Shown here: one piece after another, positions 11,306 through 32,005 of the stretch
Position numbering within the stretch: the first letter of the stretch is position 1
Layout: each line of letters opens with the position of its first letter
IMG/VR virus record: IMGVR_UViG_3300027710_000025
Location: 1 to 64,000 of that record
Length of the DNA stretch: 64,000 nucleotides
Strand: one strand, 5' to 3'
From: a virus
Translations under genes and position numbers: made by a program
The notes under the pieces: generated by a model
Database searches by the model: none
Told to the model about the DNA's origin: nothing
The model's input: only the letters and a program-made list of their open reading frames with translations

Positions 11306-11329
11306 AGAGCTCCTTGTTAACATGTGTGT

Positions 11330-13416: not shown

Positions 13417-14097
13417 ATGAATTTTGTTTTTGATGTTGACGGTACACTGACACCTAGTAGAGCACAGATGGATCCTGAGTTTAAGCAGTGGTTTAAGAAT
13501 TGGATTAGACACCGGCCCGTGTATCTGGTCACTGGATCTGATTACGCTAAAACACTGGAACAGGTTGGTCGTGATCTTTGTGAATCAGTAACGGGTGTAT
13601 ATAACTGTGCTGCCAATCAACTGCATCGAAGTGGTGTTCAAGAGTATTCACAAGAGTTTACCTTATTACCCGAACAGAGAGGGTTCTTAGAAGGCCTATT
13701 GGCTGGATCACAATGGCCCATACGCACTGGCAATCACATAGAAGATCGAGGTGCTTTGGTTAACTTCAGCACAGTGGGTCGTGGTGCTGATTCGGCACAA
13801 AGGGCATTGTATTCAGCTTGGGATCGTTCTGTACAAGAACGCAGACGTTTAGCAGTGTTAATTGAAACTCGTTATCCCGAACTGAGTGCTACAGTAGCGG
13901 GTGAAACGGGCATTGACATATACCCACAGGGCCGGGACAAGAGCCAGATCTGTACAGATATTCGGGGCATTGTGTTCTTCGGGGATCAGACACAACCGGG
14001 TGGTAATGACTACACTATCAGTCAGCAGGCCCAAACAGTTCACACTGTCTCTTCGTGGTCTGATACTTGGGATATACTTCGAACCCAATATGCCTAA
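13417..14097 (+). CDS. Phosphomannomutase-like HAD enzyme, 226 aa
   Basis: Starts MNFVFDVDGTLTPSR: the DxDGT motif of HAD phosphotransferases, Asp6 nucleophile and Asp8 acid/base. Later segments follow the eukaryotic alpha-PMM (HAD IIB cap) layout: TGVYNCAANQLHRSG, FSTVGRG, 'GIDIYPQGRDKSQI' (PMM: D-[IV]-P-x-GxDK) and 'FGDQTQPGGNDYTI' (PMM: FGDxTxPGGNDxEI). The family interconverts mannose-6-P and mannose-1-P, feeding GDP-mannose. It heads the modification island and overlaps the next gene by 8 bases. Substrate is inferred. Confidence 0.82.
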   Translation: MNFVFDVDGTLTPSRAQMDPEFKQWFKNWIRHRPVYLVTGSDYAKTLEQVGRDLCESVTGVYNCAANQLHRSGVQEYSQEFTLLPEQRGFLEGLLAGSQWPIRTGNHIEDRGALVNFSTVGRGADSAQRALYSAWDRSVQERRRLAVLIETRYPELSATVAGETGIDIYPQGRDKSQICTDIRGIVFFGDQTQPGGNDYTISQQAQTVHTVSSWSDTWDILRTQYA

Positions 14098-15571
14098 AGC
14101 AGAGTGTGTGATCTTATGGAGTGATCAAAGCTGGACAGATCAGTCTAATGAGATCAGCAGATCGCTGAATGCGGGCTATCAAAAGAGCCTGGGTCCCTAT
14201 TTGATCAGCAGTGCATTAAGGGATCAGGGCTATGCTACTCAAGTGGTTAATATCAGCTACATGACCTGGGATCAGCTGTGGGCACAGGTAGAACCCCTAT
14301 TGGATCGAGATACACTGTGGGTAGGAGTCAGCACTACATTTGCCGTTAGAGGCCTGTTTGGGCTGATGACCCTGAAATCGGATTGGCGACAGATCATGCA
14401 GTTCATGGCCCGTGTACGCACAGTGAGTCCCCGGTGTCAGTTTGCCGCTGGTGGCTACTTCTCGGGAGTATGGACTAAATTGGGCTGGTGGGTGTTTAAA
14501 AATCACAGTGACGAAAGCATACTAGCGTGGACAGATCATTTGGCCGGCAAGAACCCCTTATGGACCCATACCAATCGCATCATAGAGGGCAATCATAACG
14601 AGTTGTTTAAGACTCGTGTACACACATGGCACGATGTAAGTCGGGGTGAAGCCCTGCCCTTGGAGATCAGCAGGGGATGCAGATTCAAGTGTGCGTTCTG
14701 TAGGTTTAGCCTAAATGGCCGGGCCAAGAACGATTATCTACGTGACCCCCAGTGTATTAGGCGAGAGCTGGAGTCAAACTACGCACAATGGGGTACCACA
14801 CGCTATACCCTAGCAGATGACACTTTTAACGAAAGCACAGAAAAGCTGGAAGCCATATGGCTAGCAGTAAAAGACCTTGAGTTCAGGGTCAGCTTCTCTG
14901 CATACATACGTGCTGACCTATTGGAAAGCCACCCTGAGCAGATTAGCTTGTTACGTGATCTGGGCATTGAGAACGCTATGTTTGGCATAGAGAGCTTGAA
15001 CCCCCGCAACGGGCCCATAATTGGCAAAGCCCGTGACCCCCAGCGTACCATAGACTTTATTGCAGAGCTGAGAACCCAACACTGGCCCGGCGTGGGTCTG
15101 CACTCGGGATTCATATTGGGACTGCCCTGGGATCGACCTGAGTCCTCGGGTGCTGAGCTAGCAGAATGGGCTGTGAGTGAACAATGCCCCCTGCACAGTG
15201 TCAGCATAGAATCACTGAACATCATACGTCCCGCATGGCGTAAGTTCTGGAGCGAAAACAACACCCTGAGCCTGTTTGATGCCGATGCCGAGAAGTATGG
15301 GTATCTGTGGCTAGACCCCCGTGAGCAAGAGTGGACTAACAGTAATACGGGTATGAGTTTAACACAGGCCTATTTGGACAGCTACCGTGCTATGGAGAAG
15401 ATCTACCATCATGCTGATCAGCATAGGGTAGCGGGTTTTGCATTTAACCGATTCATTAATTTGGGCATACCCGAGTCAGTGTTGACTACCCAGACCATCA
15501 AGCAGATCAGCCAGCAGTGGGATTTACCCGAACTGACTCGGCAGCGTCATTGGCTTTGCTCTAGCTCTTGA
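14090..15571 (+). CDS. B12-binding-type radical SAM protein, 493 aa
   Basis: N-terminal 150 residues have the Rossmann-like pattern of cobalamin-binding domains (for example TLWVGVSTTFAV). The radical SAM core follows: 'ISRGCRFKCAFCRFS' gives Cys197, Cys201 and Cys204 for the 4Fe-4S cluster, then 'LADDTFNE' and 'MFGIESLNP', typical strand motifs. This architecture is used for methylations and ring or C-C chemistry; the substrate here is unknown. Start at 14090 overlaps the preceding stop. Base composition is GC-richer than the genes after 18.5 kb. Confidence 0.85.
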   Translation: MPKAECVILWSDQSWTDQSNEISRSLNAGYQKSLGPYLISSALRDQGYATQVVNISYMTWDQLWAQVEPLLDRDTLWVGVSTTFAVRGLFGLMTLKSDWRQIMQFMARVRTVSPRCQFAAGGYFSGVWTKLGWWVFKNHSDESILAWTDHLAGKNPLWTHTNRIIEGNHNELFKTRVHTWHDVSRGEALPLEISRGCRFKCAFCRFSLNGRAKNDYLRDPQCIRRELESNYAQWGTTRYTLADDTFNESTEKLEAIWLAVKDLEFRVSFSAYIRADLLESHPEQISLLRDLGIENAMFGIESLNPRNGPIIGKARDPQRTIDFIAELRTQHWPGVGLHSGFILGLPWDRPESSGAELAEWAVSEQCPLHSVSIESLNIIRPAWRKFWSENNTLSLFDADAEKYGYLWLDPREQEWTNSNTGMSLTQAYLDSYRAMEKIYHHADQHRVAGFAFNRFINLGIPESVLTTQTIKQISQQWDLPELTRQRHWLCSSS

Positions 15572-15696
15572 ATAGCCACTTGCAGTTGAAATATGTTGGC
15601 CAACAGTTCTGCACTGGGCTCTTGATTGTATGCTAATTGCAGTTCGGCTAGATTAGTCTGTAACATCAGTAAATGAGTTTGATTTTTTGTGTCCAT
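15547..15696 (-). CDS. Small coiled-coil protein, 49 aa
   Basis: MDTKNQTHLLMLQTNLAELQ then AELLANIFQLQVAIQELEQ: heptad-like leucines. It lies opposite and overlaps the end of the radical SAM gene by 25 bases. A late promoter motif (15702-15709) ends exactly 5 bases before the ATG. Confidence 0.5.
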   Translation of the reverse strand: MDTKNQTHLLMLQTNLAELQLAYNQEPSAELLANIFQLQVAIQELEQSQ

Positions 15697-15701
15697 GCAG
15701 A

Positions 15702-15709
15702 TATTTATT
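15702..15709 (-). promoter_or_regulatory. Late promoter, leaderless type
   Basis: AATAAATA then TCTGC then ATG (15696): the start codon falls on the predicted +1. Confidence 0.65.
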
Positions 15710-15710
15710 T

Positions 15711-15718
15711 GGTAAATA
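15711..15718 (+). promoter_or_regulatory. Late promoter
   Basis: GGTAAATA, 15 bases before the ATG at 15734 with AGGGAG between; back-to-back with the minus-strand late motif. Confidence 0.6.
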
Positions 15719-15733
15719 CGCAGGGAGATAATA

Positions 15734-15922
15734 ATGGCAGGATTCTTTTCAGGTACAGGTAACACCAGTGAGTTAGGCAGAGTAGCTCGTGCTCTGTATG
15801 GCTACGGCTTGGGCACACAGGTAGGCTTGTACTCGCCCTGCTGGACTTACTACGGGGGCGGGGCCAGTAACGTGCAACTCAGTGCGTCATTCGCTGGACG
15901 CTATTATCCCGGTTCTTACTAA
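15734..15922 (+). CDS. Small Gly/Tyr-rich late protein, 62 aa
   Basis: MAGFFSGTGNTSELGRVARA followed by Gly/Tyr/Ser-rich sequence ending GRYYPGSY. Late promoter and an AGGGAG site precede it. Short Gly-rich late proteins are usually virion components; no family recognised. Confidence 0.65.
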   Translation: MAGFFSGTGNTSELGRVARALYGYGLGTQVGLYSPCWTYYGGGASNVQLSASFAGRYYPGSY

Positions 15923-15952
15923 TCAAGAACTTATCTAACAGTTAACTTGGGC

Positions 15953-15960
15953 GTTAAATA
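15953..15960 (+). promoter_or_regulatory. Late promoter
   Basis: GTTAAATA upstream of the gene at 15981; leader contains AAAGGAG. Confidence 0.6.
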
Positions 15961-15980
15961 CACCAAAGGAGACTCTATCC

Positions 15981-16487
15981 ATGGATATGACAATTGTGAC
16001 TCGACTATTATCGGGTCAATGCACTAAACAAACTCGCTGGGAATTCGTTAATTTTGTTCTAGAAGAACACGGTGAATTTAAAGGTCGTGCTGCCCAGGCA
16101 GTATTAGCACGCCGCAGACAAATACAAGACCTATTAGAACACACTGCCCAAGCAAGCCTACGTACTGATCTAGTCAATGAAGCTGTTCAGCTAGATGAAT
16201 GGTTGGATCGGCACACTGAACAAGAGCTTGCAGACATGCTGGCCACTATTGAAGATCAGGAAGCTGACTATTGGGCAGAGCGTCTAGGGCGTGAAGCTGC
16301 TGTGGATCTAATGAGCCAGGGCAAAGTCAGCAAAGAAGTTATGAGCCGTGCAGTATTACTCAGCGAAGAAGGCTATCGAAAATTTGCTGAAACTTGCGGC
16401 AGTATCAGCTACGTGATCAGCACTACTTCTAAAGAAGTAGAGATGTCTCAGGGCTATGCCACAATGCCAGAGGGTATGCCAAGATGA
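15981..16487 (+). CDS. Helical late protein, 168 aa
   Basis: All-helical, charged protein (MDMTIVTRLLSGQCTKQTRW onward) with coiled-coil potential at about residues 45-115. Strong AAAGGAG site. Overlaps the following glycosyltransferase gene by 4 bases. Function unknown; could be a virion or scaffold component. Confidence 0.75.
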   Translation: MDMTIVTRLLSGQCTKQTRWEFVNFVLEEHGEFKGRAAQAVLARRRQIQDLLEHTAQASLRTDLVNEAVQLDEWLDRHTEQELADMLATIEDQEADYWAERLGREAAVDLMSQGKVSKEVMSRAVLLSEEGYRKFAETCGSISYVISTTSKEVEMSQGYATMPEGMPR

Positions 16488-17224
16488 GCTTACTTAAGAA
16501 AGCACTCAAGACTCAGTCCCATACACCTGCGGCTGACACAGAACAAACCGCCGCACCTGCGGAAAAACGTGAGTCAAAACCTGTATCAGATAAAGAAATT
16601 CGTCTAGCAGTATGTGTACCCTGCAGAGAAATGATACATTCAGTGTTCAGCCACAACCTACATAGTCTATTGAACTATAATTGGAACAAGGGCATTGATA
16701 CCAAAGTGTTTTACAATATGGGCACCCTGTTGCAAAATCAACGCGAAAGCCTAGTCAGTGCTGCTCGTAGTTGGGCAGCTACTCATATCTTATGGTTAGA
16801 CTCAGATATGAGCTTTCCGTTCTATACAGCCTACAAACTGTTAGATCACGATCAGCCTATTGTGGCGGGCAACTATGTTACTCGTCAGATGCCCTACAAA
16901 ACTGTGGCCTATACTGAAATTGGGGGAAACTGGGATCAGTTCCTCAAACACAACAAAGACACCGCTATCAGCAAAGATCTATTAGAAGTAGAAGCAATGG
17001 GCATGGGCTGTATGCTGACTGATATCACAGTGTTTGACAAATTGCAGCATCCTTACTTTCCTGTAACTTGGAGCCCGGAGTCACAAGATTATCTAGGTGA
17101 AGACATTAATTTCTGTACTGCTGCTCGTGCAGCTGGTTATAAAATTCAAGTAGATGATATATTAAGTCGCCAGCTAACACATATTGGTGCATTTGCGTTT
17201 GGACACGATCTAGTACAAAATTAA
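16484..17224 (+). CDS. GT-A glycosyltransferase, 246 aa
   Basis: Residues 40-60 'RLAVCVPCREMIHSVFSHNL' begin a GT2-type nucleotide-sugar fold; 'ILWLDSDMSF' supplies the DxD metal site (Asp106, Asp108); 'LGEDINFCTAARAAGYKIQVD' is the acceptor-side ED motif common to GT2 enzymes. The first 35 residues are a flexible Ala/Pro/Thr linker. It probably adds sugar to a virion or host-surface acceptor; the sugar is unknown. Confidence 0.8.
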   Translation: MSLLKKALKTQSHTPAADTEQTAAPAEKRESKPVSDKEIRLAVCVPCREMIHSVFSHNLHSLLNYNWNKGIDTKVFYNMGTLLQNQRESLVSAARSWAATHILWLDSDMSFPFYTAYKLLDHDQPIVAGNYVTRQMPYKTVAYTEIGGNWDQFLKHNKDTAISKDLLEVEAMGMGCMLTDITVFDKLQHPYFPVTWSPESQDYLGEDINFCTAARAAGYKIQVDDILSRQLTHIGAFAFGHDLVQN

Positions 17225-17226
17225 AT

Positions 17227-17234
17227 TATAAATA
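17227..17234 (+). promoter_or_regulatory. Late promoter, perfect TATAAATA
   Basis: Ahead of the structural protein at 17265; the leader carries TTAGGA. Confidence 0.75.
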
Positions 17235-17264
17235 ACAAGTTACATTTAATTTAGGAATTTATCT

Positions 17265-18116
17265 ATGGCCGGCTCAGGAGTCTTTCCAAAAACAGCTTCA
17301 CTTGATATTATATATCAAGGCGACTATAACACTATTCAATCTACCATCAACGGAGTATTGAGTACTTATTATGGGCAGACTCCTCTCAGCAGTCAAATAT
17401 CGGCTAATCCTGTGATCGCAGCACCTGCGTGGGATAATCTACGTTTAGATATCAACAAGTGCTACAAACATATCACTAATACAGATAGTACCATTCTTGA
17501 TGTTGATCCTCAAGACATTATCCTAGCAGGTGATGCCAACGCTTATAAGGTCGCTGCTGACTATTGTGAAACAAACAAGGCCACTGTGGCTGCTGGGCAA
17601 TTAACTTCCAATGTTAACTCAAATTCTAGTAGTGCAACTTGGAACGGAATTCGTATCTTCAAGACAACTTATAGTTGGACTGGTGCAGACGCAGCTAATT
17701 ATTGGTTCAATTTGGGTGGCAGTTTTGTAGTGGCCATAGATGGATCAAATGGTCTTGGCACTGCAAAAGATAACATGTGGCTGACTATTATAAACTCAAT
17801 GCCCGATCAGACTTACAGTAATACCCAGTGGGATGCAGGTGCAAGCATTGATCTTATTTCTTATGGCACTATCGGATCAGTCTACTCCGAAAACTATGCC
17901 AGGATTGAGATTCAAAAAATCAGTGCTACGCAATTAGATGTAACTGTCACACTCAATGACGCGGATACGGGTGACCAACAAAATGCTAGTCCAACTCCGG
18001 GTCTTCCGGTTGATGAAAACGTCGATGTTGACGTGTCTGCTAGCGTCACTAGATACAGCAGCTTTGACAGCATTGTTGCACCAGCAGTTACAGTAACTCC
18101 TGTTTCTAACTTCTAA
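17265..18116 (+). CDS. Putative virion structural protein, 283 aa
   Basis: Ser/Thr/Asn/Gly-rich, low in Lys and Cys, beta-rich, with typical virion composition. Opens MAGSGVFPKTASLDIIYQGD. A perfect late promoter precedes it and it forms its own small unit between enzyme genes. It might be a substrate of the neighbouring modification enzymes, but that is speculation. Confidence 0.7.
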   Translation: MAGSGVFPKTASLDIIYQGDYNTIQSTINGVLSTYYGQTPLSSQISANPVIAAPAWDNLRLDINKCYKHITNTDSTILDVDPQDIILAGDANAYKVAADYCETNKATVAAGQLTSNVNSNSSSATWNGIRIFKTTYSWTGADAANYWFNLGGSFVVAIDGSNGLGTAKDNMWLTIINSMPDQTYSNTQWDAGASIDLISYGTIGSVYSENYARIEIQKISATQLDVTVTLNDADTGDQQNASPTPGLPVDENVDVDVSASVTRYSSFDSIVAPAVTVTPVSNF

Positions 18117-18161
18117 TTCAAGATTAGTTCCCAACAGCTAATTTTTAAGATAATTAGCTGT

Positions 18162-18500
18162 ATGGAAACACTTGATCAACAATTAGAAGCGGCACTGAGT
18201 TTTGCCCAATATCAAACAACTCTTAATCAACAACGTCGGCTGCTAAAAGAACAGTTCGAAACAGACACTGTAGTGGCCTATAATGGTGGACTGTTTAAAG
18301 TAACACAAGAATGGCTAGCTAGCATTGACAAAGAATCAAATTGGATACTAGATATGAATCGTAATCCAGTTATGATTGCCAACCCTAATGAGCTTTATGA
18401 ACTGGCTCGAACTGCTTATCAAACAGCACTAGCCGAATATGGCGATGCATATCAGCAACTTCGTCGCCAGCGTAGTGTTAAATCCTTAACTGATCTATGA
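18162..18500 (+). CDS. Conserved T4-like phage protein, 112 aa
   Basis: Helical N-terminus (METLDQQLEAALSFAQYQTT), then 'DTVVAYNGGLFKVTQEWLAS' and a C-terminal helix rich in Arg/Gln. Similar proteins occur in T4-like marine phages beside structural genes; role unknown. Overlaps the next gene by 4 bases and opens the long coupled array to 28727. Confidence 0.7.
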   Translation: METLDQQLEAALSFAQYQTTLNQQRRLLKEQFETDTVVAYNGGLFKVTQEWLASIDKESNWILDMNRNPVMIANPNELYELARTAYQTALAEYGDAYQQLRRQRSVKSLTDL

Positions 18501-19300
18501 GCAAGGGTGTATTACTTTTTGCACACAATAACGAGCAAGTGGACTACGGGCTCATGGCCTATTGGTGTGCTACTAGGGTAACTAAACATTTAGGAGTCGG
18601 TGTAACATTAGTTACAGACTCGGCCACTGTTGGCGGACTTGATACTAATGTTGTAGGATGGCGTAGTGCTTTTGAATATGTTATCATTCAAGAAAGCCAT
18701 GCTACACAGACCAAGCGGTATGGTAGTGTTACTAATCAATTAACATTCCATAACTTAGATCGCATAGATGCTTACTCACTTACTCCTTACGATGAAACAA
18801 TAGTAATGGATACTGATATTGTGATTCAAACCTCCGCATTGTCTAAATTGTGGGGATCTGAGAATGACTTTGTGGTATGTGATTGCAGTACTGACCTGTA
18901 CGGACAAACAACAGATGAATTTAAATGGGTAAGTGATCGAAGTATTAAATTCTACTGGGCTACTATATTCTACTTTAAGCGGACTGAATCTGCTGAATTG
19001 TTTTTTGATGTTTGCAAATGGTGTAAGGTAAACTATAGATGGCTCAGTCATGTATACGAACTTCCAGCCGGCCCTATACGGAATGACTTCATTTGGAGCA
19101 TAGCCTTACATACATTAAATCATTCAGCACCTACAATACCGCACAACCTACTACACAGTAATTTTGAAGATAGATTATTAGATATGTCGGATACCGCTGT
19201 TAAATTTTTAACACCTACAGGACTATGCAAGGTTAACGCAGATGTACATGTGTTTAACAAATTTGATTTATTAGAACAAATCAACAAGGAGTTAGTATGA
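18497..19300 (+). CDS. GT-A glycosyltransferase-like protein, 267 aa
   Basis: Opening strand 'KGVLLFAHNNEQVDYGLMAY', then 'LTPYDETIVMDTDIVI' with Asp105 and Asp107 as the DxD metal site of a GT8-like fold. Later 'FYWATIFYFKRTESAELFFDVC' matches its neighbour at 19297, showing the two arose by duplication. ATGA overlap on both sides. Donor and acceptor unknown. Confidence 0.75.
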   Translation: MSKGVLLFAHNNEQVDYGLMAYWCATRVTKHLGVGVTLVTDSATVGGLDTNVVGWRSAFEYVIIQESHATQTKRYGSVTNQLTFHNLDRIDAYSLTPYDETIVMDTDIVIQTSALSKLWGSENDFVVCDCSTDLYGQTTDEFKWVSDRSIKFYWATIFYFKRTESAELFFDVCKWCKVNYRWLSHVYELPAGPIRNDFIWSIALHTLNHSAPTIPHNLLHSNFEDRLLDMSDTAVKFLTPTGLCKVNADVHVFNKFDLLEQINKELV

Positions 19301-20073
19301 CTAAAGGTTATCTAGTTATGGCCCAAGGCGAACAGTATGCTAGACAAGCAGAAGCATTAGCGAAGAGTATATCGTCTACACAGTCTTGCATTAGTCGTCT
19401 AAGTGTTATTACTGATCAAGAAGTTGATCATAGTTTATTTGATCAAGTAATCGCATTGCCTGTTGACCTTGCACCTGATGCTAAATGGAAAATTGAAAAC
19501 CGTGTTCAGTTTTATGATCTAACTCCGTATGATGAAACAGTCATATTAGACAGTGATATGCTATTCTTATCGGACGTTAGTCATTGGTGGACACATTTAG
19601 ACAAGTACGAATTATTATTAACTGACAAGGTAAAAACATATAGGGGAGAATGGGTGGGTGCAAATAATCCTTATCGATTTGCTTTTACAATTCACAAGCT
19701 GCCTAATGTATATTCTGCATTCACTTACTTTAAAAAGACCCAGTTGACTGCTGAGTTCTTTACATTAATAAAACAGATTGTACTAAATTGGGATACATGG
19801 ATTTATAGATACACTCCAGATTATATACAAAAGTCTCCTTCTATTGATCTTGCAATGGCTATTGCAGTTGACATCATGGGAATAAATGAAGAAGTTATTA
19901 GCAAAGAACAATTTCCTACATTTACCCACATGAAAGGAAAAATACAAGGATGGAGAAGTGGAGTCGACGATTGGACTGCTGTCGTCGATACTTACTATTC
20001 AGAAGACGGATTACGATTAAACTCTCACCTCCAGACTGGAATACTACATTATGTTAAGAAAGATTTTGTATGA
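19297..20073 (+). CDS. GT-A glycosyltransferase-like protein, 258 aa
   Basis: Paralogue of 18497-19300: 'YDLTPYDETVILDSDMLFL' gives DxD at Asp85/Asp87, and 'VYSAFTYFKKTQLTAEFFTL' aligns with the upstream enzyme. Basic C-terminus. Coupled by ATGA to both neighbours. Confidence 0.75.
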   Translation: MTKGYLVMAQGEQYARQAEALAKSISSTQSCISRLSVITDQEVDHSLFDQVIALPVDLAPDAKWKIENRVQFYDLTPYDETVILDSDMLFLSDVSHWWTHLDKYELLLTDKVKTYRGEWVGANNPYRFAFTIHKLPNVYSAFTYFKKTQLTAEFFTLIKQIVLNWDTWIYRYTPDYIQKSPSIDLAMAIAVDIMGINEEVISKEQFPTFTHMKGKIQGWRSGVDDWTAVVDTYYSEDGLRLNSHLQTGILHYVKKDFV

Positions 20074-20615
20074 TTGTATATTATGATCCAGAGAATGGAA
20101 ATCTATTAGGAATGTCTTATAAGATTGATCCTGCAAAAACACAACACCATTTTGAAACGTTTGATCCTATTGCAGAAAAGATATTTCTAGGACAAGAAAA
20201 AATAACAAGATATTATGCAGTTGTTAAATCGGGACCTTCTCGGCAAGGTTTTTTAAAATTAAAACACTCTAACAATTCTAATATCAATAATAATAAAAAT
20301 AGAATTGTTAAAATTAAACAAAATTTAGATTCTGCTGAACTAACTGTTGCTCAAGATACTGTGACAAAAACAGTAACGCTGAGTATCCTACCATCTACTC
20401 TGGCATGGTGGGAATTAGACCAGTTTTACTCTAAGAAAAAATGTATAATAGTTGCATGTGCGTTGAATAATCCGTTTGTGCCTTATTGGTCTAAATCTTT
20501 TAGCTATACAGACTTTGAGACTGATATTGTTATTCCGTATACGGGCTCTGATAACATAACTTTTTATACCACTAGACTATTTGATTCATATAAACATGAA
20601 GTTAAACCTATCTGA
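20070..20615 (+). CDS. Unknown late protein, 181 aa
   Basis: Beta-rich protein opening MIVYYDPENGNLLGMSYKID with an Asn/Lys-rich low-complexity patch at about residues 67-85. No family recognised. Embedded in the glycosyltransferase array with overlaps on both sides (20 bases with the next gene). Confidence 0.75.
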   Translation: MIVYYDPENGNLLGMSYKIDPAKTQHHFETFDPIAEKIFLGQEKITRYYAVVKSGPSRQGFLKLKHSNNSNINNNKNRIVKIKQNLDSAELTVAQDTVTKTVTLSILPSTLAWWELDQFYSKKKCIIVACALNNPFVPYWSKSFSYTDFETDIVIPYTGSDNITFYTTRLFDSYKHEVKPI

Positions 20616-22700: not shown

Positions 22701-24006
22701 AAAAGATATAGAGCAGATAATGCCTACCTTCTGTGCTATACCCTTTGTTAGTATGGTAGTTAATACAGACGCAACCGTACAGCCCTGCTGTCTTATGCAA
22801 CGCAATACACACAGGCTAAAAGATGCTAACGGAAAAGTACTTACCATAAATGAAAAATTGTCTGATTCATGGAATTCTAATGAAATGAAGTTTATTAGAA
22901 CAGAGATGATATCTGGCAATAAATTAGTAGGATGTAATGTCTGCTACTTACAAGAAAGCAGTGGCCGCACCAGCAACCGTCAGTATGCTAATTCTGAATG
23001 GAGTAACAAACTAGGAGATAAGCATATGTTTGATCTAGTTGACAAAGCAGTGTTAACTGGTGGCGAACTTGATTACAGTCTTGCTTACTTAGATTTACGA
23101 CTAGGTAATTTGTGTAATCTAAAATGTAGAATGTGTAGTCCTTTCAACAGTAGTCAGATTGCTAAAGAGCATATAGAATTAGAAAAGAAAGATCCGGAAT
23201 ATAAAGCAGTATGGGCAAAGAGTTTTGGTTTCTTTGACAAACGAATTAATGAAGTTCAATCCTGGTTTGAAAGAGATTTCTTGTGGGATCAAATCATTGA
23301 TCTTATTCCTTCTTTAAAGAAAGTTTACATGACTGGAGGAGAGCCTACACTCATTCAGAACAACTTTAAATTTATGGAAGAATGTATCCGTAAAGGTCGC
23401 AGAGACATTGTATTGTTCTTTAACACTAACTGCACTAATGTAAACAAGAAGTTCACTAGTCTAATCGGACAGTTTGGCAGAGTTAATATCAATGCCAGCA
23501 TTGACGGTGTAGGTAGTGTGAACGATTATATTAGGAGTCCTAGCCATTGGGAACAGATTAATGGGAATGTAGAAACATTAGCACAAATGCCTAATGTTCA
23601 TTTAGGAATAACTCCCACAGTACAGGTGTATAATGTGTTTAATCTTGTTGATACATTAAAATGGGTTGATCAGCTTAATTCCAAATATAAGAAAAGTATA
23701 TTCGTTGACTTCTTAATAAATGTACATCCTGTTCATCTGTCTGTAACAATTCTACCAGACAGCATTAGGAACAAGGTAGCAAATGATTTAATAGAATACA
23801 AAAATACTTACTTAAACTCTCGTAGCCCTGAGTTAACAGTTAACAGTGTTAACGGCATTATAGGTTTATTGCAAAAACCAAGAGCAGCTGACTGGCAAGA
23901 GCAGCTGTCTCGATTTAAAACTTATACACACTCATTAGATGTTGAAAGAGGTCAAAGCCTTAGATCTATCAGTGCAGAACTAGCGGACTTAATCAATGAA
24001 GAGTAA
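22687..24006 (+). CDS. Radical SAM protein with extra N-terminal cysteines, 439 aa
   Basis: Radical SAM cluster motif 'CNLKCRMC' at Cys143, Cys147 and Cys150, followed by 'YMTGGEPTLIQ' (the GGEP motif binding SAM). Before it, Cys16, Cys34, Cys35, Cys83 and Cys86 form a SPASM/Twitch-like pattern placed at the N-terminus instead of the usual C-terminus, suggesting a second Fe-S cluster. SPASM/Twitch enzymes modify peptides or sugars. Paralogous to the next gene, which it overlaps by 11 bases. Confidence 0.85.
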   Translation: MNKFEKDIEQIMPTFCAIPFVSMVVNTDATVQPCCLMQRNTHRLKDANGKVLTINEKLSDSWNSNEMKFIRTEMISGNKLVGCNVCYLQESSGRTSNRQYANSEWSNKLGDKHMFDLVDKAVLTGGELDYSLAYLDLRLGNLCNLKCRMCSPFNSSQIAKEHIELEKKDPEYKAVWAKSFGFFDKRINEVQSWFERDFLWDQIIDLIPSLKKVYMTGGEPTLIQNNFKFMEECIRKGRRDIVLFFNTNCTNVNKKFTSLIGQFGRVNINASIDGVGSVNDYIRSPSHWEQINGNVETLAQMPNVHLGITPTVQVYNVFNLVDTLKWVDQLNSKYKKSIFVDFLINVHPVHLSVTILPDSIRNKVANDLIEYKNTYLNSRSPELTVNSVNGIIGLLQKPRAADWQEQLSRFKTYTHSLDVERGQSLRSISAELADLINEE

Positions 24007-25231
24007 AACATTTTGTATCTTACCCTGGACACACATTGCTACCTACACCGATGGCAGTGCATTACTATGCTGTGTGTCTGGAAGCGAACCTAACCTAAAT
24101 CTAAACAAACTGTCTTTGCAAGAAGTTTGGAACAGTGATCACTTTAAGTCAGCAAGGAAGAATATGTTGCAGGGTATCCCTGTTAAGAACTGTTCAGCCT
24201 GTTATAAAGAAGAACAGGTAGGAATACACAGTCATCGACAGATTGAAAATCACATATGGAAAGGTAAGCTAGGGGAAGACTACATCAACGAGCTTGTGGC
24301 CAGTACTAACGAAGACGGCTCCCTAGACAGAGATTGGATCACACTTGATCTAAGACTAGGTAATACCTGTAATCTACAATGTGTTATGTGCCGACCTATT
24401 GACTCTAGTAAATGGGTAAAACATGCAACCATTCTAAAACAAGAACTTACTACAGAAGCCAAATGGGATTGGAAACACAAAGTTGATAACTATTCTACAA
24501 ATAACTTTGAATGGTACAAAGACGATAAGTTCTTAGAAGACTTTTACAGTGCTGCAACAGACATTAAACATATTATATTTGGTGGGGGCGAACCTTTGTA
24601 TATTAAAGAGCACAAGGAGATACTGACTAGATTAGTAGAGTCTGGTGCAAGTAAAAACATTGACTTGCGTTATCACACCAACGGTACTATCTACGATAAA
24701 GAAGTAGTTGAGTTATGGACTAAGTTTAAGTATGTAGACATTATGATCAGCATTGATGGCGGCAAAGAGATCAATGACTATATTAGATATCCTGCCGACT
24801 GGGACACAATTGAACGTAATCTACATCTGTATGACAACACTCCTGCTAACATTGATATTAAAATACTATGTACAGTACAGGCATTAAACATTTATTATCT
24901 ACCTGAGTTTGCTGATTGGTTGCTGATGCAGAACTATAAAAAGATCAGCAAACCTAGACTGGATGGTATTTTTCATACCGGCACACTGCATTATCCTCAG
25001 TACCTATGCACTAAGGTATTGCCTAAACACACAAAGGCCAAAGTTGCTGAAAAGATATATCGATATGCGGAACAGCACACAGACAATCCTGCTATTCAAC
25101 GATTAACAAAAATGATAGACTTTATGAACAGTGAAGACTGGAGCAGTAAATTAGATCAAACTGTTGAATACATTAATAAGTTAGATTCCCTACGATCTAC
25201 TAACAGCGAGTTTTTTAAGAAGTTACTATGA
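23996..25231 (+). CDS. Radical SAM protein with extra N-terminal cysteines, 411 aa
   Basis: Same plan as its neighbour: N-terminal Cys7, Cys25, Cys26, Cys66 and Cys69, then 'CNLQCVMC' (Cys125, Cys129, Cys132) and 'FGGGEPLYIK'. 'DIMISIDGGKEINDYIRYP' parallels 'NINASIDGVGSVNDYIRSP' of the first. The two probably work in sequence or as a pair on related substrates. Substrate unknown. Confidence 0.85.
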   Translation: MKSKTFCILPWTHIATYTDGSALLCCVSGSEPNLNLNKLSLQEVWNSDHFKSARKNMLQGIPVKNCSACYKEEQVGIHSHRQIENHIWKGKLGEDYINELVASTNEDGSLDRDWITLDLRLGNTCNLQCVMCRPIDSSKWVKHATILKQELTTEAKWDWKHKVDNYSTNNFEWYKDDKFLEDFYSAATDIKHIIFGGGEPLYIKEHKEILTRLVESGASKNIDLRYHTNGTIYDKEVVELWTKFKYVDIMISIDGGKEINDYIRYPADWDTIERNLHLYDNTPANIDIKILCTVQALNIYYLPEFADWLLMQNYKKISKPRLDGIFHTGTLHYPQYLCTKVLPKHTKAKVAEKIYRYAEQHTDNPAIQRLTKMIDFMNSEDWSSKLDQTVEYINKLDSLRSTNSEFFKKLL

Positions 25232-26178
25232 AAGATACATTTTTAGAAGTTAAGATTAAAGATAAGTTTGATCAATATCATTATATAACATATAAGATTC
25301 AAAAATCGCACCTTGCAGCCCGATGGTTAGGTTTAACAAATTTAAATTTAAATAATCCTAAATATTCTCTTACCAGTGTGCTTAATAATAGGACCGTGTT
25401 AGATGTTCCTGAAATAACACAGCAAATTAACAATATTGTTTTAAAAATAAATCAGCTCTACGACAAGGTACTTCCTACCTATGAAGTAATTGATAATCCT
25501 AAATTAAATTACCTCCATGAAGAGTTTGAAATATTTGGAGAACGATACGATGAATTAAAAATGTCTAGAAAGTTTAGTTACGAACTTGAACAGACTTTTT
25601 TTGCATTAAATGAACATATTCATATGTGCGAAGATGCTATGATTACTGAACCTACCTCATGGGGAGGTTTCGGAATACTGTATGATATATTACCACTTGG
25701 TATGCATCTTAATATAATAGAGTCAGATAGGTTATTGCTTGAAACTGGTTTCACTTGGGGAAGATTATATCTAGGATATAATACATTAGGCAAAGATTGG
25801 TTAACGGTGTGTAAAGATAATGATGTAGAGGTGATTGTAAGAGATATGGTCAAGCCTCAAAAACGTTTTGCAGCCGAAGCTTGGTTAAACTTTAATATTG
25901 ACCAACAAGAACATAATAGAGTATCGTCATTTATTAATTGGTGCAACTCTTTGCCATTTGATGTACGCAAGAAAGTTCCTTTTAACAGTTTAAATCAATT
26001 ATCATTAGGAAGATTTCCTATAGGTGATATTGTCATTGACGATGCGTTTTTAAAGATTGATTCTAATCCCGACCACTGGAAAAGTTATAGACACAAATGT
26101 AAGCAAGAATGGAATCATAAAGTTCTAACTACATTTAGATCTGTTGAAGATATTAGAATATATGAACAAGACGATTGA
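25228..26178 (+). CDS. Unknown protein partnered with radical SAM pair, 316 aa
   Basis: AT-rich gene; mixed alpha/beta protein opening MKDTFLEVKIKDKFDQYHYI. No family recognised. It is coupled (ATGA) to the second radical SAM gene and overlaps the following hydroxylase-like gene by 17 bases, so it may serve the same pathway, as carrier, substrate-binding or accessory subunit. Confidence 0.75.
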   Translation: MKDTFLEVKIKDKFDQYHYITYKIQKSHLAARWLGLTNLNLNNPKYSLTSVLNNRTVLDVPEITQQINNIVLKINQLYDKVLPTYEVIDNPKLNYLHEEFEIFGERYDELKMSRKFSYELEQTFFALNEHIHMCEDAMITEPTSWGGFGILYDILPLGMHLNIIESDRLLLETGFTWGRLYLGYNTLGKDWLTVCKDNDVEVIVRDMVKPQKRFAAEAWLNFNIDQQEHNRVSSFINWCNSLPFDVRKKVPFNSLNQLSLGRFPIGDIVIDDAFLKIDSNPDHWKSYRHKCKQEWNHKVLTTFRSVEDIRIYEQDD

Positions 26179-26833
26179 AACATTTTTATTAGAGCACGAA
26201 CACAAGACGTGGCGGCCAACTGATGAGCTTCCTATTAATATATGGAATAGCGATTGGCCGTGGGCTCCTATTTTTGCAACCGTGGATCAACAAACGATTA
26301 ATGAAGAGTTAAGAAAAGTAGAGCACTTCTTTGTTCCGCATAGAGATAAAGATAAAATTAACAGTTACGGACATGAAGGTTGGTCTGCATTAACTCTGCA
26401 TGGTTTAGATTATGACAAGACAGAAAACTACGATAGATACGGACACACTGATGAAAGCAAATATAGATGGACAGAAGTTTGCGACTACTGCCCTTATATT
26501 GTTAATTTAATAAAGGGCTTGCCGTTTTTAAGTTACGGACGAGTTCGTATTATGAAGTTATCAGCAGGTGGATATATAATGCCACATGTAGACGGTCCTG
26601 GAAGAATATTTGGTCCTTTAAATTTTGCATTAACACAGCCCGAGGGATGCAGATTTGTTTTTAAAGATATCGGTACTGTGCCTTTTAAAGTAGGCAGAGG
26701 TTTTATGTTAGATATTGGTCGAGAGCATATTGTTATTAACGAATCTAGTGAAGATAGATATCACATTATTATTCATGGCAGACCTACTGCGGCAATAACT
26801 AATTTGATAGCAGAATCAATTAAACAGTTATGA
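26162..26833 (+). CDS. Aspartyl/asparaginyl hydroxylase-like 2OG-Fe(II) oxygenase, 223 aa
   Basis: Shows the double-stranded beta-helix pattern: 'MPHVDGPGR' (first His and Asp ligands), 'LNFALTQPEGCRFVF', 'GRGFMLDIGREHIVINESSEDRYHI', where the His of REH is the second iron His and the Arg of EDR binds 2-oxoglutarate. This fits the AspH-like family. Start at 26162 (ATG) inside the end of the preceding gene. Substrate presumably a product of the same array. Confidence 0.8.
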   Translation: MNKTIETFLLEHEHKTWRPTDELPINIWNSDWPWAPIFATVDQQTINEELRKVEHFFVPHRDKDKINSYGHEGWSALTLHGLDYDKTENYDRYGHTDESKYRWTEVCDYCPYIVNLIKGLPFLSYGRVRIMKLSAGGYIMPHVDGPGRIFGPLNFALTQPEGCRFVFKDIGTVPFKVGRGFMLDIGREHIVINESSEDRYHIIIHGRPTAAITNLIAESIKQL

Positions 26834-28185
26834 ACATAGTACAGGGCAGATTTGAAAATAACATAGACCTTGCAGTCTGTATATTTCCATCTGACATGTT
26901 AAAACATGATCAGTTAAAAGATACCATGACTGATTATACTACATTTTATGCACATCGATTAGAACAGATAAGTTCTAAGTTAGATATCGTATATGCAGAC
27001 AGTATTGATCAAGGCTTAACAAACTATAGTCAATATAAACATATCTTGTTTATGGCAGCAGGAGTTAGGATATACGATGCAAGTATTATCTTAGAGATTG
27101 TTGAAGAAATTGAAAAACATCCTAACTATCTAGCCGCAGCACATATATTAGAATGGAAAGAAAATTGGTACGAACTGCATCATCAATTTGTATTAGTTAA
27201 TACAGATAATTGGAATAAGATAGGCAAACCTGCATTTGGCAACTGGCAATCTAATACAGAAGAATTAGTAGTAGTTGAACGTAGCGTAGAAAACTTTCAC
27301 GACGATTATACTCCGTTATGGATCAAAGATACTGGTCGCAGACATCTCCAACATCATAATAAGCAAGGATGGAACTTTATTGATAAAGGCCTACGTGCAG
27401 GTTTAGATATAATTAACTGGAATCAAAGTATTAGAAACAAGCGGACTTATTACTATCCAGAAACCAACAGTACAGCATTTTTTAAATCATACAAGACTAA
27501 AACATTAGATCCTACTGTGATTAATTTTAATCAGAAAAGATTAATTAGTGAAATGTCTGCCGGTGTTAGTAATCAAATATGGGCAATTAATAGTGAACAT
27601 ATGTATATCCGAAATGCTGGCAAGACTTACGATATTGTAGCATTGCCTGCCAGCGGATTTAAGTATCTAGATATCTTTAAATCAAAAGCATTATCTCCAT
27701 CAGGCGAGATAATCATTTATGATTACAATCAGTTATCTCTCAATTGGATCTACCATATATACAGTTCTAGTTCAATGGACATTAAGGAATTAGTTACTAC
27801 CTTTCCTCATCGTAAACATTTAAAATGGTTTGGGTATAACAATACAAACATAATTGTCAACGGAGAATTAGCAGACGGATTCGTTGAAAGTTTTAAAGTA
27901 ACTAAAGATTATTTTAATGGCAAGTTTGATCAGTATCTAACACAGTTTAGAAACAGCCCTGTTAGGTTTATCAAAACTGATTTGATATACAATTATCTTA
28001 ATCTATTAAATGAAATAGGAGATAGTCGTTGCTTATTTCATATTTCTAATATCTATGCTACTGACTTTCTAGTCAGTACAATAGGTCTAAAAAATGCAGA
28101 CAGGTTATTTGATCGATTCACAGCTATCTTGCATCCTAACACAAAGATAGTAGGACATACTCCTAAAGGAAAGTTTTTAACATGA
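26830..28185 (+). CDS. Unknown two-domain protein, 451 aa
   Basis: N-terminal 200 residues resemble a glycosyltransferase-like fold ('YKHILFMAAGVRIYDASIIL' in the place of a DxD strand). The C-terminal half ('FKYLDIFKSKALSPSGEIIIYD', 'VRFIKTDLIYNYLNLLNEI') looks like a methyltransferase-type Rossmann domain. Neither assignment is secure. Coupled by ATGA on both sides. Confidence 0.7.
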   Translation: MNIVQGRFENNIDLAVCIFPSDMLKHDQLKDTMTDYTTFYAHRLEQISSKLDIVYADSIDQGLTNYSQYKHILFMAAGVRIYDASIILEIVEEIEKHPNYLAAAHILEWKENWYELHHQFVLVNTDNWNKIGKPAFGNWQSNTEELVVVERSVENFHDDYTPLWIKDTGRRHLQHHNKQGWNFIDKGLRAGLDIINWNQSIRNKRTYYYPETNSTAFFKSYKTKTLDPTVINFNQKRLISEMSAGVSNQIWAINSEHMYIRNAGKTYDIVALPASGFKYLDIFKSKALSPSGEIIIYDYNQLSLNWIYHIYSSSSMDIKELVTTFPHRKHLKWFGYNNTNIIVNGELADGFVESFKVTKDYFNGKFDQYLTQFRNSPVRFIKTDLIYNYLNLLNEIGDSRCLFHISNIYATDFLVSTIGLKNADRLFDRFTAILHPNTKIVGHTPKGKFLT

Positions 28186-28727
28186 ATATAGACAAGGACG
28201 CATTCAGTAGCGGACAGATTGGCAGCAAGATTTGGTTATGTGAAGAATTAGAAAAGACAGGGTGGCAGTCTGACTTTACTTACATATACGGAGGCTGGCA
28301 CGGTATTACTGCATTCTTGTTATTAAGCAGGGGTAAATTTGAAGTTAATAGAATACGCAGTATTGATATTGATCCTAATGCAGAACCTATTGCCGATATG
28401 ATTAATGAAAACTGGGTATGGCAGGAGTGGAAGTTTAAAGCATTCACTAACGATTGTAATAACTTTGAACCTATATATGGAGACCTAGTTATTAACACTA
28501 GCACAGAGCATTTTGATAACATGACTTGGTTTGATCGAATTCCTAAAGGTACTCGAGTGGTACTGCAAGGAAATAATATGCCGCATGAGGATCATGTGAT
28601 ACATACAGAAACGTTATCGGACTTTATTGAACATTACCCGCTATCAGAATCTGTGTTTACAGGAGAAAAAGAATTTGTATATCCTACTTGGAAGTTTTCT
28701 CGCTACATGATCATAGGTGTTAAATAA
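28182..28727 (+). CDS. Class I SAM methyltransferase-like protein, 181 aa
   Basis: 'FTYIYGGWHGITAFLLLS' occupies the SAM-binding loop position (motif I), 'RIRSIDIDPNAEPIADMI' is the acidic end of strand 2, and 'GDLVINTSTEHFDNM' corresponds to motif IV. Short for a methyltransferase, without an obvious substrate domain. Its stop codon is part of the next late promoter motif. Confidence 0.75.
   Translation: MNIDKDAFSSGQIGSKIWLCEELEKTGWQSDFTYIYGGWHGITAFLLLSRGKFEVNRIRSIDIDPNAEPIADMINENWVWQEWKFKAFTNDCNNFEPIYGDLVINTSTEHFDNMTWFDRIPKGTRVVLQGNNMPHEDHVIHTETLSDFIEHYPLSESVFTGEKEFVYPTWKFSRYMIIGVK
28719..28726 (+). promoter_or_regulatory. Late promoter, near-leaderless type
   Basis: GTTAAATA, overlapping the methyltransferase stop, then AATT and ATG at 28731. 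Confidence 0.55.
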
Positions 28728-28730
28728 ATT

Positions 28731-29270
28731 ATGTTTATTAAAAAACTTGAATTAACTGCTGACAGTGATCTAATGCGTAGCGGGTTAGATAGTGTGTTAA
28801 CTATGACACAATGGGGAACTGAAAATCAAATTGGACTTTCCCATCGCCCGGGTGCTAACAATTTATGGAAAGATTGTGTAGGCAGTTTATACGACAGAGA
28901 AACAGGACTTGATATTGCAAACGAGCAAGAATTTACAGAGTTAAATTCAAATGTTCCAGAGTACATACAATCTAAATTAGAAGAGCTCGCAACACTTGAA
29001 AACATAAAATTGGGTAGAATAAGAATTATGCGTCTTATGCCCAAGACCGGGCTATCAGTTCATGCAGATACTTCAGTTAGATATCATTATGTACTGCAAA
29101 CTAATCCACATGCGTATATTGCACATACTTTTCATGCAGGCAATGTTAGTGCATTGTGTTTTCACATTCCAGCAGATAACAACTTTTATAAAGTCGATAC
29201 TACTAAGCATCATTTTGTATACAACGGAGGGCAAGAGCCCAGAATTCATCTAGTAGTTTGCCCTATTTAA
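28731..29270 (+). CDS. 2OG-Fe(II) hydroxylase-like protein, 179 aa
   Basis: 'IRIMRLMPKTGLSVHADTSV' carries the HxD pair, 'TKHHFVYNGGQEPRIHLVV' the distal His and the Arg for 2-oxoglutarate. Same AspH-like pattern as 26162-26833 but more divergent. Possible leaderless mRNA (late motif ends 4 bases before ATG). Confidence 0.72.
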   Translation: MFIKKLELTADSDLMRSGLDSVLTMTQWGTENQIGLSHRPGANNLWKDCVGSLYDRETGLDIANEQEFTELNSNVPEYIQSKLEELATLENIKLGRIRIMRLMPKTGLSVHADTSVRYHYVLQTNPHAYIAHTFHAGNVSALCFHIPADNNFYKVDTTKHHFVYNGGQEPRIHLVVCPI

Positions 29271-29274
29271 CTAC

Positions 29275-29282
29275 GATAAATA
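29275..29282 (+). promoter_or_regulatory. Late promoter, leaderless type
   Basis: GATAAATA, then TACAC, then ATG at 29288. Confidence 0.7.
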
Positions 29283-29287
29283 TACAC

Positions 29288-29776
29288 ATGAATATCTACA
29301 TAGTTGTTAAGAAATATACCCTGTCTGAATTTGCAGATGCCACATATTGGGGGCAATTTAATTTATTAACTGGGCTCCCGTTATCTGACGATCAATTTTT
29401 AAAGTTGATTAACTTCTATTCTACAATAGATAGTTACCGAAATTTTGTAATGAATAGTTTGTCTTTTGCTGACGGACAAGGCTATAAGTTTGTGTCTACC
29501 GCAAACTCTTCAGTAGTCTATTCTTACTTTGCAGTGTTAGATTTAGCAGCAATACCAAATATTGTAAAAAATGGATTAGAATACGAAACATTTGCCACAG
29601 CACGAGATTCGCTATTTGCAGAGTTAGGATGGACTAGCCTACAAGAACGTGTAACAACCGCAGAAGTGACCTTTGATAAAACTACTAATCAATTCGTAGG
29701 TATTCCCAGTAGCTATGAAGAAATTGCTCAGTTATACGAGATTTCTACAGAATTAGAAACAACCCTAGGAACTTGA
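29288..29776 (+). CDS. Unknown late protein, 162 aa
   Basis: Opens MNIYIVVKKYTLSEFADATY; helical core and Thr/Tyr-rich segments. No family recognised. The ATG at 29288 is exactly 5 bases after the late promoter box and no Shine-Dalgarno is visible; an upstream reading would start inside the preceding gene. Confidence 0.7.
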   Translation: MNIYIVVKKYTLSEFADATYWGQFNLLTGLPLSDDQFLKLINFYSTIDSYRNFVMNSLSFADGQGYKFVSTANSSVVYSYFAVLDLAAIPNIVKNGLEYETFATARDSLFAELGWTSLQERVTTAEVTFDKTTNQFVGIPSSYEEIAQLYEISTELETTLGT

Positions 29777-29777
29777 A

Positions 29778-30455
29778 ATGAGCGACCCAATTTATTTTAT
29801 ATGTGCTACTCCGGGCAGTTCTGGAAATTCTTTAGTCAGAATGTTTAGAACAGTTATTGAAACAACATCGGCACTGACTCCTACTACATTTTTACAGACG
29901 CCTGTTAGTCCCATGACTCCCGAATTTTGGTTTGATAATGTTGACCCGGGCACAAACCAAGTAGTATATGTTCCGTATCGCCCAAACTATGCAAAACTCA
30001 GAGAGAGATTCCCAGGATGCAAAATTGTAGTAATGACACATTTGCTAACTGAGTGTAACAGTCTTGCGTTAAGCCTTTGGGAAGGCTTTTATAAGAACGC
30101 ATACGAATTTGGTGCAGAACCATTTTTTAGACAAATATTAGAAACACACAGTCACTTATTTTCTAGCACCACATTAACGCCCGATCAGCTATCCAATAAA
30201 GAAATTAACACCTTTGTAAAGATAGTTGCATACGAAAAATTGTTAGATGGATTTCATTGTTTAACAATCCCCAACGATCCTGACGTTATTGAAATTAGCC
30301 ACAAAGATTTCTATTACAATAGACCGCAAGTAAGAAGTCAAATAGAAGCTTTTACAGGCTCAGCGTTTCGTCAAGCAGAAATTGATGTATATGATCAGAT
30401 AGCAGAGGCACACATCAATAGTTTCTTTAAAACTTCCTCGCTATTCTTGCGATAA
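29778..30455 (+). CDS. Sulfotransferase-like P-loop protein, 225 aa
   Basis: 'PIYFICATPGSSGNSLVRMF' at the N-terminus resembles the 5'-phosphosulfate loop of PAPS sulfotransferases (strand, then P-x-S-G-[ST]). 'LRERFPGCKIVVMTH' and 'DPDVIEISHKDFYYN' fit later strands of the fold. The catalytic His and 3'-phosphate site are not obvious, so the family call is tentative. Last gene of the modification island, followed by a sigma-70 promoter. Confidence 0.6.
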   Translation: MSDPIYFICATPGSSGNSLVRMFRTVIETTSALTPTTFLQTPVSPMTPEFWFDNVDPGTNQVVYVPYRPNYAKLRERFPGCKIVVMTHLLTECNSLALSLWEGFYKNAYEFGAEPFFRQILETHSHLFSSTTLTPDQLSNKEINTFVKIVAYEKLLDGFHCLTIPNDPDVIEISHKDFYYNRPQVRSQIEAFTGSAFRQAEIDVYDQIAEAHINSFFKTSSLFLR

Positions 30456-31639: not shown

Positions 31640-31640
31640 A

Positions 31641-31967: not shown

Positions 31968-31975
31968 GTTGTGTA

Positions 31976-31983
31976 CTTAAATA
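31976..31983 (+). promoter_or_regulatory. Late promoter
   Basis: CTTAAATA, 22 bases before the GTG at 32006. Confidence 0.5.
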
Positions 31984-32005
31984 AAACACTATTTACAGAT
32001 TACAA

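What the first reader, a model, noticed from the sequence alone, without database searches (positions are those of the whole stretch)
13417..30455. A 17-kb modification island: PMM, radical SAM, glycosyltransferases, hydroxylases, methyl- and sulfotransferase-like genes
From 13417 to 30455 there are about 17 enzymes or enzyme-like genes on one strand, and most junctions between 18162 and 28185 overlap by 4-20 bases. The set can make an activated sugar (PMM), add several sugars (five GT-A-like proteins plus a GT9-like protein across the switch), and then oxidise, methylate or sulfate the product. This is far more chemistry than typical virion or DNA glucosylation. A decorated virion protein or phage-made surface glycan or peptide is the simplest reading. 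The part after about 18.5 kb is AT-richer than the part before, hinting at stepwise acquisition.
Basis: partly seen in the sequence, partly recalled or inferred. Interest (0 to 1): 0.78.

Follow-up and report, generated by a model that had tools for sequence, protein, structure and literature searches.

The report
Phage tail-protein glycan island, radical enzymes
A 17-kb gene block in an uncultured aquatic phage pairs a probable tail protein with sugar-adding enzymes and with unusual radical, hydroxylating and methylating enzymes, so the phage may dress its own particle (or its host's surface) with an exotic, swappable sugar-based coat; blocks of this type are common in aquatic phages, and no function has been reported for them.

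Summary
The island is real. From 13417 to 30455, 21 plus-strand ORFs (one 62-aa ORF was missed) keep the same order in phage contigs at about 90, 70 and 60% protein identity, under purifying selection. There are three radical SAM enzymes, not one; two belong to the NCBI family NF033640. PMM, two GT8-like glycosyltransferases, two Asp/Asn-hydroxylase-type oxygenases and a GT-A-fold protein with a possible methyltransferase half are supported. The sulfotransferase and GT9 calls are not. It is not one unit. A core cassette, u283-u112-GT-GT-u181-GT(-GT), recurs in many phages without radical SAM genes. u283 is homologous to PA5oct gp360, annotated as MS-detected beside the tail fibre genes. The tailoring genes recur as arrays of about 5 NF033640 copies in many viral contigs. 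Relatives with the same flanks can carry nucleotide-sugar epimerases instead. T4-type late-promoter motifs precede the 62-aa ORF, u168 and u283, and no island protein has a membrane segment. Best reading: a late-expressed cytosolic pathway that glycosylates and tailors a tail protein or its glycan, at a swap locus. Host-surface modification remains the main rival. Pelagimyophage 'host recognition clusters' with glycosyltransferases and radical SAM cassettes are the closest prior art. The substrate is unproven.

The parts
13417..14097 (+). Phosphomannomutase-like HAD enzyme (PMM)
   Evidence: PF03332 81 bits, cut-off 22.4; phrog_29277; DVDGT motif intact
14090..15571 (+). rSAM1: radical SAM enzyme, probably with a B12-binding N-terminus
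   Evidence: PF04055 4e-13; best NCBIfam hits are B12-type radical SAM families, all far below cut-off; CRFKCAFC motif; start
   Evidence: 39-94% identical in 7 other distinct island sequences, just upstream of u168; outside this clade's island not found; GTAAATA 22 nt upstream
15981..16487 (+). u168, unknown
   Evidence: weak phrog_1409 hit; NTAAATA in 6/6 upstream regions
16484..17224 (+). GTa1, putative GT-A glycosyltransferase
   Evidence: phrog_1574 3e-27 (unknown) and weak phrog glycosyltransferase hits; relatives in cyanophages and groundwater phages, some annotated glycosyltransferase
17265..18116 (+). u283: virion/tail-associated protein, likely acceptor or partner
   Evidence: hhalign 99.6%, E 1e-23 to PA5oct gp360, HMM 3.9e-37; gp360 noted ESI-MS/MS beside tail fibre genes; TATAAATA at 17227
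18162..18500 (+). u112, small partner protein of u283
   Evidence: directly after u283 in nearly all cassettes
18497..19300 (+). GTa2, GT8/glycogenin-like glycosyltransferase
   Evidence: profile A6 to glycogenin 1e-6; invariant DxD
19297..20073 (+). GTa3, GT8/glycogenin-like glycosyltransferase
   Evidence: profile A6
20070..20615 (+). u181, fast-evolving partner protein of the GT cassette
   Evidence: in the same slot in about 30 loci
20596..21519 (+). GTa4, putative GT2-like transferase
   Evidence: some family members match Pfam GT2 models at E 0.001-0.007, below cut-off
21516..22700 (+). GTa5, paralogue of GTa4
   Evidence: reciprocal tblastn and HMM hits
22687..24006 (+). rSAM2, twitch-domain radical SAM (NF033640)
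   Evidence: 361 bits, cut-off 170
23996..25231 (+). rSAM3, twitch-domain radical SAM (NF033640)
   Evidence: 382 bits, cut-off 170; 96% identical in nearest relative, dN/dS 0.02
25228..26178 (+). u316, phage-only fold with conserved LH..FE, LNxxIHxxE and YNTLGK motifs
   Evidence: AlphaFold pLDDT 93.5; no PDB fold match below E 0.03; significant BFVD matches are all phage proteins
26162..26833 (+). AspH1, Asp/Asn beta-hydroxylase-type 2OG oxygenase
   Evidence: PF05118 48 bits, cut-off 22.6; HxD...H kept in 132/135 homologues
26830..28185 (+). u451: N-terminal GT-A domain, C-terminal half probably methyltransferase-like
   Evidence: AlphaFold pLDDT 91; Foldseek to majastridin, LH3, COLGALT1, PBCV-1 capsid GT, and weaker to NNMT
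28182..28727 (+). MT181, putative class I methyltransferase
   Evidence: no Pfam or NCBIfam match; motif reading only; family in 80 of 99 loci
28731..29270 (+). AspH2, second Asp/Asn beta-hydroxylase-type 2OG oxygenase
   Evidence: PF05118 31.5 bits, cut-off 22.6
29288..29776 (+). u172, fast-evolving, unknown
   Evidence: 64.5% identity against about 90% for most enzymes
29778..30455 (+).
   Evidence: no significant family or PDB match
17227..17234 (+). TATAAATA, T4-type late promoter motif before u283
   Evidence: NTAAATA enriched upstream of u283 and u168 families
31641..31967 (-). HesB/IscA-type Fe-S protein, possible supplier for the radical SAM enzymes (accessory)
   Evidence: PF01521 61 bits

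Best explanation
The island is a late-expressed, cytosolic modification module of a T4-like phage, in two layers. Layer 1 is a core cassette (u283-u112-GT8-GT8-u181-GT-GT) that glycosylates the tail-associated virion protein u283, or a glycan carried by it. Layer 2 is an exchangeable tailoring cassette: two here, up to about eleven elsewhere, twitch-domain radical SAM enzymes, two AspH-type oxygenases, a GT-A/methyltransferase-like protein, MT181 and u316. It oxidises, methylates or rearranges the sugars or acceptor residues, with PMM supplying sugar phosphate. The cassette sits at a swap locus, so related phages carry different chemistry. Shown here: gene content, intact catalytic motifs, conservation, linkage to a virion-protein family, late-type promoter motifs, no membrane proteins, and the swap. 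Inferred: that u283 is the acceptor, that the radical SAM substrate is a sugar or a residue of u283, and that the benefit is altered receptor binding or shielding.
For: u283 is homologous to PA5oct gp360, annotated ESI-MS/MS beside the long tail fibre genes. In L239-L262-type phages the cassette follows genes with tail/virion PHROG hits and is not joined to a radical SAM array. The order u283-u112-g-g-181-G is kept across very divergent loci. Late-type NTAAATA: 6/6 u168 upstreams (0.8 expected) and 14/37 u283 upstreams (4.2 expected), but 1/36, 1/38 and 1/31 for GTa2, GTa3 and u451. No island protein has a membrane-like or signal segment. GT8/glycogenin-like profile; u451 fold resembles protein-acting GTs, including the PBCV-1 capsid GT, LH3 and COLGALT1. 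Array neighbours elsewhere: UDP-Glc/GDP-Man dehydrogenase, NAD epimerase, DegT aminotransferase, carbamoyltransferase. Same-flank relative L210 carries three NAD epimerases/dehydratases instead. Motifs intact: CxxxCxxC in 354/355 full-length radical SAMs, HxD...H in 132/135 AspH. Non-enzyme proteins evolve fastest.
Against: No glycan, modified residue or activity has been seen. Linkage to u283 is genomic only. Radical SAM arrays also occur without u283 nearby (L049-L061 and others) and on Bdellovibrionota contigs up to 0.9 Mb, so u283 cannot be their only substrate. The main structural block of the relative G001 lies elsewhere in the contig. Several GT and MT calls are weak. The NTAAATA motif is also frequent before some AspH2-family genes (20/53).
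Confidence: 0.5

Rival explanations
1. The enzymes alter the host's surface glycan (LPS O-chain or capsule) during infection, to block superinfection or keep progeny from binding debris; u283 is only a neighbouring tail gene.
For: PMC7029224 proposes this for pelagimyophage GT8-rich host recognition clusters. Nucleotide-sugar enzymes accompany the arrays. Similar arrays lie on bacterial contigs, some with GTa4/5-type genes.
Against: No flippase, polymerase, lipid-carrier transferase or any membrane protein in the island. Late-type promoter motifs. Constant pairing of the GTs with u283-u112.
Confidence: 0.27
2. The radical SAM and AspH enzymes modify a peptide or protein directly (RiPP-like chemistry: epimerisation, C-methylation, beta-hydroxylation), with p62 or a short virion protein as substrate; the GTs finish the product.
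For: A conserved 62-aa ORF lies beside rSAM1. Weak local similarity of the twitch enzymes to peptide maturases such as PapB. AspH family acts on Asp/Asn/Arg residues (established knowledge).
Against: p62 is found only in this clade, whereas the radical SAM arrays are far wider. It shows no recognised leader/core layout. No PqqD-type recognition protein was seen among the island hits.
Confidence: 0.13
3. The island hypermodifies phage DNA.
For: T4 itself glucosylates its DNA (established knowledge).
Against: No nucleotide hydroxymethylase or TET/JBP-type oxygenase was found in the island; the GTs are GT8/GT-A type; the oxygenases are AspH-type.
Confidence: 0.03

Closest known systems
Pelagimyophage 'host recognition cluster' (HRC), PMC7029224
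   Same: T4-like aquatic phages; hypervariable island with tail fibres, GT8-type glycosyltransferases and added radical SAM cassettes.
   Different: There the genes were listed, GTs assigned to LPS, radical SAM unexplained; freshwater members lacked LPS and radical SAM genes. Here a conserved tail-protein/GT core, u316, u451 and dual AspH are defined, and the island is not shown to lie between VrlC and gp14.
NF033640 twitch domain-containing radical SAM family (NCBIfam)
   Same: rSAM2 and rSAM3 are members.
   Different: The family model names no substrate; here it is put in a context: phage arrays with GTs, AspH, MT181, u316 and u451.
Chlorovirus PBCV-1 self-encoded capsid glycosylation (A064R), PMC9614988
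   Same: Virus-encoded, mostly soluble GTs plus methyltransferases build an atypical glycan on a virion protein; GT and MT fused in one protein; u451's GT domain matches the PBCV-1 GT fold.
   Different: Eukaryotic virus, capsid N-glycan, no radical SAM in the passages read; fold similarity only.
Mycobacteriophage virion glycosylation (Freeman et al. 2023, as cited in PMC12619734)
   Same: Glycans sit on capsid and tail tube proteins.
   Different: No radical SAM or AspH tailoring is mentioned in the passage read; the original paper is not held.

Membership tests
NF033640 twitch radical SAM | score above curated cut-off 170 | tested here: met
   361 and 382 bits
NF033640 twitch radical SAM | CxxxCxxC cluster motif and N-terminal twitch cysteines | tested here: met
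   invariant in alignment A4; 354/355 full-length homologues keep CxxxCxxC
Eukaryotic-type phosphomannomutase PF03332 | score above gathering cut-off | tested here: met
   81 bits against 22.4
Asp/Asn beta-hydroxylase PF05118 | score above cut-off and HxD...H iron site | tested here: met
   48 and 31.5 bits against 22.6; motif
GT8 (GTa2/GTa3) | profile similarity to GT8 enzymes and DxD motif | tested here: met
   glycogenin 1e-6, DxD invariant; Pfam itself gave no hit
GT9 (11749-12492, minus) | match to a GT9 model or structure | tested here: not met
   no hit in Pfam, PHROGs or PDB profile; fold not tested
Sulfotransferase (29778-30455) | match to a sulfotransferase model or structure | tested here: not met
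   none; fold not tested
Pelagimyophage HRC | GTs, radical SAM and tail-type genes in one variable island | tested here: met
Pelagimyophage HRC | position between VrlC and neck gene gp14 | tested here: inconclusive
   in G001 the island is at 123-141 kb, structural genes (read by eye) at about 22-87 kb; ends of the record undefined
Phage virion glycosylation system | glycan present on a virion protein | not testable with these tools
   needs mass spectrometry
RiPP pathway | precursor peptide with leader and core | tested here: inconclusive
   only p62 qualifies by size; clade-limited

The most novel reading that the evidence does not exclude
A widespread class of aquatic phages builds chemically unique, radical-tailored glycans (or residues) on its own tail proteins, with exchangeable arrays of twitch-domain radical SAM enzymes working behind a fixed tail-protein/GT8 cassette and a phage-only protein fold (u316): a bacteriophage counterpart of chlorovirus self-glycosylation with radical chemistry.
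Probability: 0.35. Interest if true: 0.85.

Novelty: new variant of a known kind. Interest (0 to 1): 0.62.

Why it matters
Radical SAM cassettes have been noted in marine phage host-recognition islands without a function. If true, tail-surface chemistry would be an exchangeable, host-range-like trait, and a source of new sugar- or protein-modifying enzymes.

Tried and rejected
Alternative genetic codes: no gain; the apparently gene-poor 1-11 kb holds small minus-strand ORFs, some conserved in G001. Close DNA match in named phages: none. u283 and p62 themselves in named phages: none; a divergent u283 relative found the PA5oct family. u112 relative L041 in phages: none. u316 relative in phages: none. 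PDB sequence profiles of u316, u451, MT181, GTa4, GTa1, GT9-like and ST225: nothing significant. Foldseek of u316 against PDB: nothing. Profile comparison of GTa4 with GTa1 or GT8, and of u451 with MT181: no relation. u112 alignment was too variable to scan with. DNA hypermodification rejected for lack of the required enzymes. Recent stepwise acquisition from GC rejected because the relative shows the same step.
Full report
What it is in. The window is 64 of 71.3 kb of an IMG/VR virus record. No near DNA relative is in named phages. A 151-kb relative (G001, IMGVR 3300034117_000713) carries the whole island and, judged by eye from its ORFs, T4-like replication, packaging, sheath and baseplate genes. 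The host is unknown.

Check of the observation. Twenty contiguous plus-strand ORFs run from 13417 to 30455, tightly overlapped between 18162 and 28185. One more, p62 (15734-15922), lies in the 409-base gap after rSAM1. It is conserved in seven other distinct island sequences and nowhere else that was searched. PMM, two AspH-type oxygenases and three radical SAM enzymes are clear; two of the latter are NF033640 members. GTa2/GTa3 are GT8/glycogenin-like. GTa4/5 are only weakly GT2-like through relatives. The sulfotransferase and GT9 labels are unsupported. The GC step is shared by G001, so it is old.

Conservation. The genes are collinear in L003/L004 (about 90% aa), L006 (about 70%), and L007, L035, L036 and L115 (about 50-75% for most genes); p62, PMM and rSAM1 lie partly outside some of these stretches, and u172 is missing from the last group. 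Between the window and G001, dN/dS is 0.02-0.11 for enzymes and 0.14-0.17 for u283, u112, u181 and u172. One contig, L009, is a mosaic: rSAM3 is 97% identical over the part present while its neighbours are mostly 37-75%.

Two layers. In the 99 loci anchored on radical SAM, u316 or u451, the radical SAM family occurs in 96, AspH in 79, MT181 in 80, GTa4/5 in 59, u316 in 49 and u451 in 47; some contigs are counted more than once because they were fetched with several queries. In 61 loci over 15 kb that carry them, there are 2-11 radical SAM copies, mean 4.9. A separate MT181-anchored scan shows the cassette u283-u112-g-g-181-G-G without a radical SAM array next to it in many phages (L239-L262), directly after genes with tail/virion PHROG hits. 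So the GT cassette belongs with u283, and the radical SAM set is an add-on. L207, L210 and L224 share the flank MT181-SleB-FeS-ligase-HNH (ligase 71-73%) but have no radical SAM genes in the held stretch. In L210 the place holds three NAD epimerases/dehydratases and an oxygenase. Array neighbours elsewhere include UDP-glucose/GDP-mannose dehydrogenase, epimerase, DegT aminotransferase and carbamoyltransferase.

The virion link. u283 has no direct hit in phages, but a family member (L041) hits PA5oct-group jumbo phages. The u283 alignment aligns to PA5oct gp360 at 99.6% probability, E 1e-23, and the u283 HMM hits it at 3.9e-37. The GenBank record notes ESI-MS/MS for gp360, in a row with structural proteins and the long tail fibre distal subunit. 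I did not read the primary proteomics paper. In G001 u283 has a glycine-rich C-terminal extension. Late promoter-like NTAAATA lies before p62, u168 and u283 and before downstream genes that include the collagen-like tail fibre gene TF1; the motif is enriched before u168 and u283 families and depleted before the GTa2, GTa3 and u451 families. This argues for late operon expression; promoter activity itself is not shown.

Chemistry. u451 folds confidently (pLDDT 91) with GT-A matches that include the PBCV-1 capsid glycosyltransferase and the collagen hydroxylysine glycosyltransferases; NNMT-type methyltransferases appear lower in the list, consistent with a Rossmann-like C-terminal half. The output does not say which half they match, so the methyltransferase part is an inference. 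PBCV-1 A064R, a fused GT-GT-MT, is the nearest 'works like' case; this is analogy, not membership. u316 is a confident model (93.5) with no PDB relative and only phage relatives in BFVD. No island protein has a membrane segment, so the pathway looks cytosolic and cannot by itself export or polymerise a lipid-linked glycan.

Verdict. The gene-level facts are firm. The inference that the acceptor is u283 or another virion component is about an even bet, ahead of host-surface modification. Similar islands were listed in pelagimyophages, so the kind is known; the fixed tail-protein/GT core with a swappable radical SAM tailoring set is, as far as the paper searches here show, not described.

Noticed in passing
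window 1-11640: Looks gene-poor but holds small overlapping minus-strand ORFs, some conserved in G001:110263-122922; short sequences (e.g. 5505-5568, 11308-11360) recur at several places in relatives and may be promoters.
   Followed up: partly
window 15734-15922: Conserved 62-aa Gly/Tyr-rich ORF specific to this island's clade; virion peptide or modified precursor.
   Followed up: partly
L127-L203, e.g. L156/L168: Bdellovibrionota contigs (up to 0.9 Mb) carry arrays of the same radical SAM family, some with AspH and u451 relatives; function unknown.
   Followed up: partly
window 25228-26178 (u316): Phage-only fold with conserved His/Asn/Glu motifs, confident model, no PDB relative; a relative by fold in Agrobacterium phage Atu_ph07.
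   Followed up: partly
L009:7177-7758: Mosaic island: rSAM3 97% identical to the window while neighbours are mostly 37-75%, pointing to recombination inside the island.
   Followed up: no
L285 (Vibrio phage K566), L286 (KVP40): Cultured vibriophages carry NF033640-like radical SAM genes (five in the K566 stretch, two in the KVP40 stretch plus a weak third), in KVP40 close to a PF00534 GT-type gene; possible laboratory models.
   Followed up: partly
window 31376-33951: Acyl carrier protein and HesB-type Fe-S protein on the minus strand, a PP-loop (SGGSDS) protein and a TctC-like binding protein in a phage; the last two diverge faster than neighbours.
   Followed up: no
window 37982-40063 and 45673-46098: Collagen-like tail fibre rich in G-A-T triplets, and a 2OG oxygenase (PF13759) between tail genes; possible further hydroxylation or glycosylation targets.
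   Followed up: no
window 49997-50740: Fatty acid desaturase (PF00487) among late genes.
   Followed up: no
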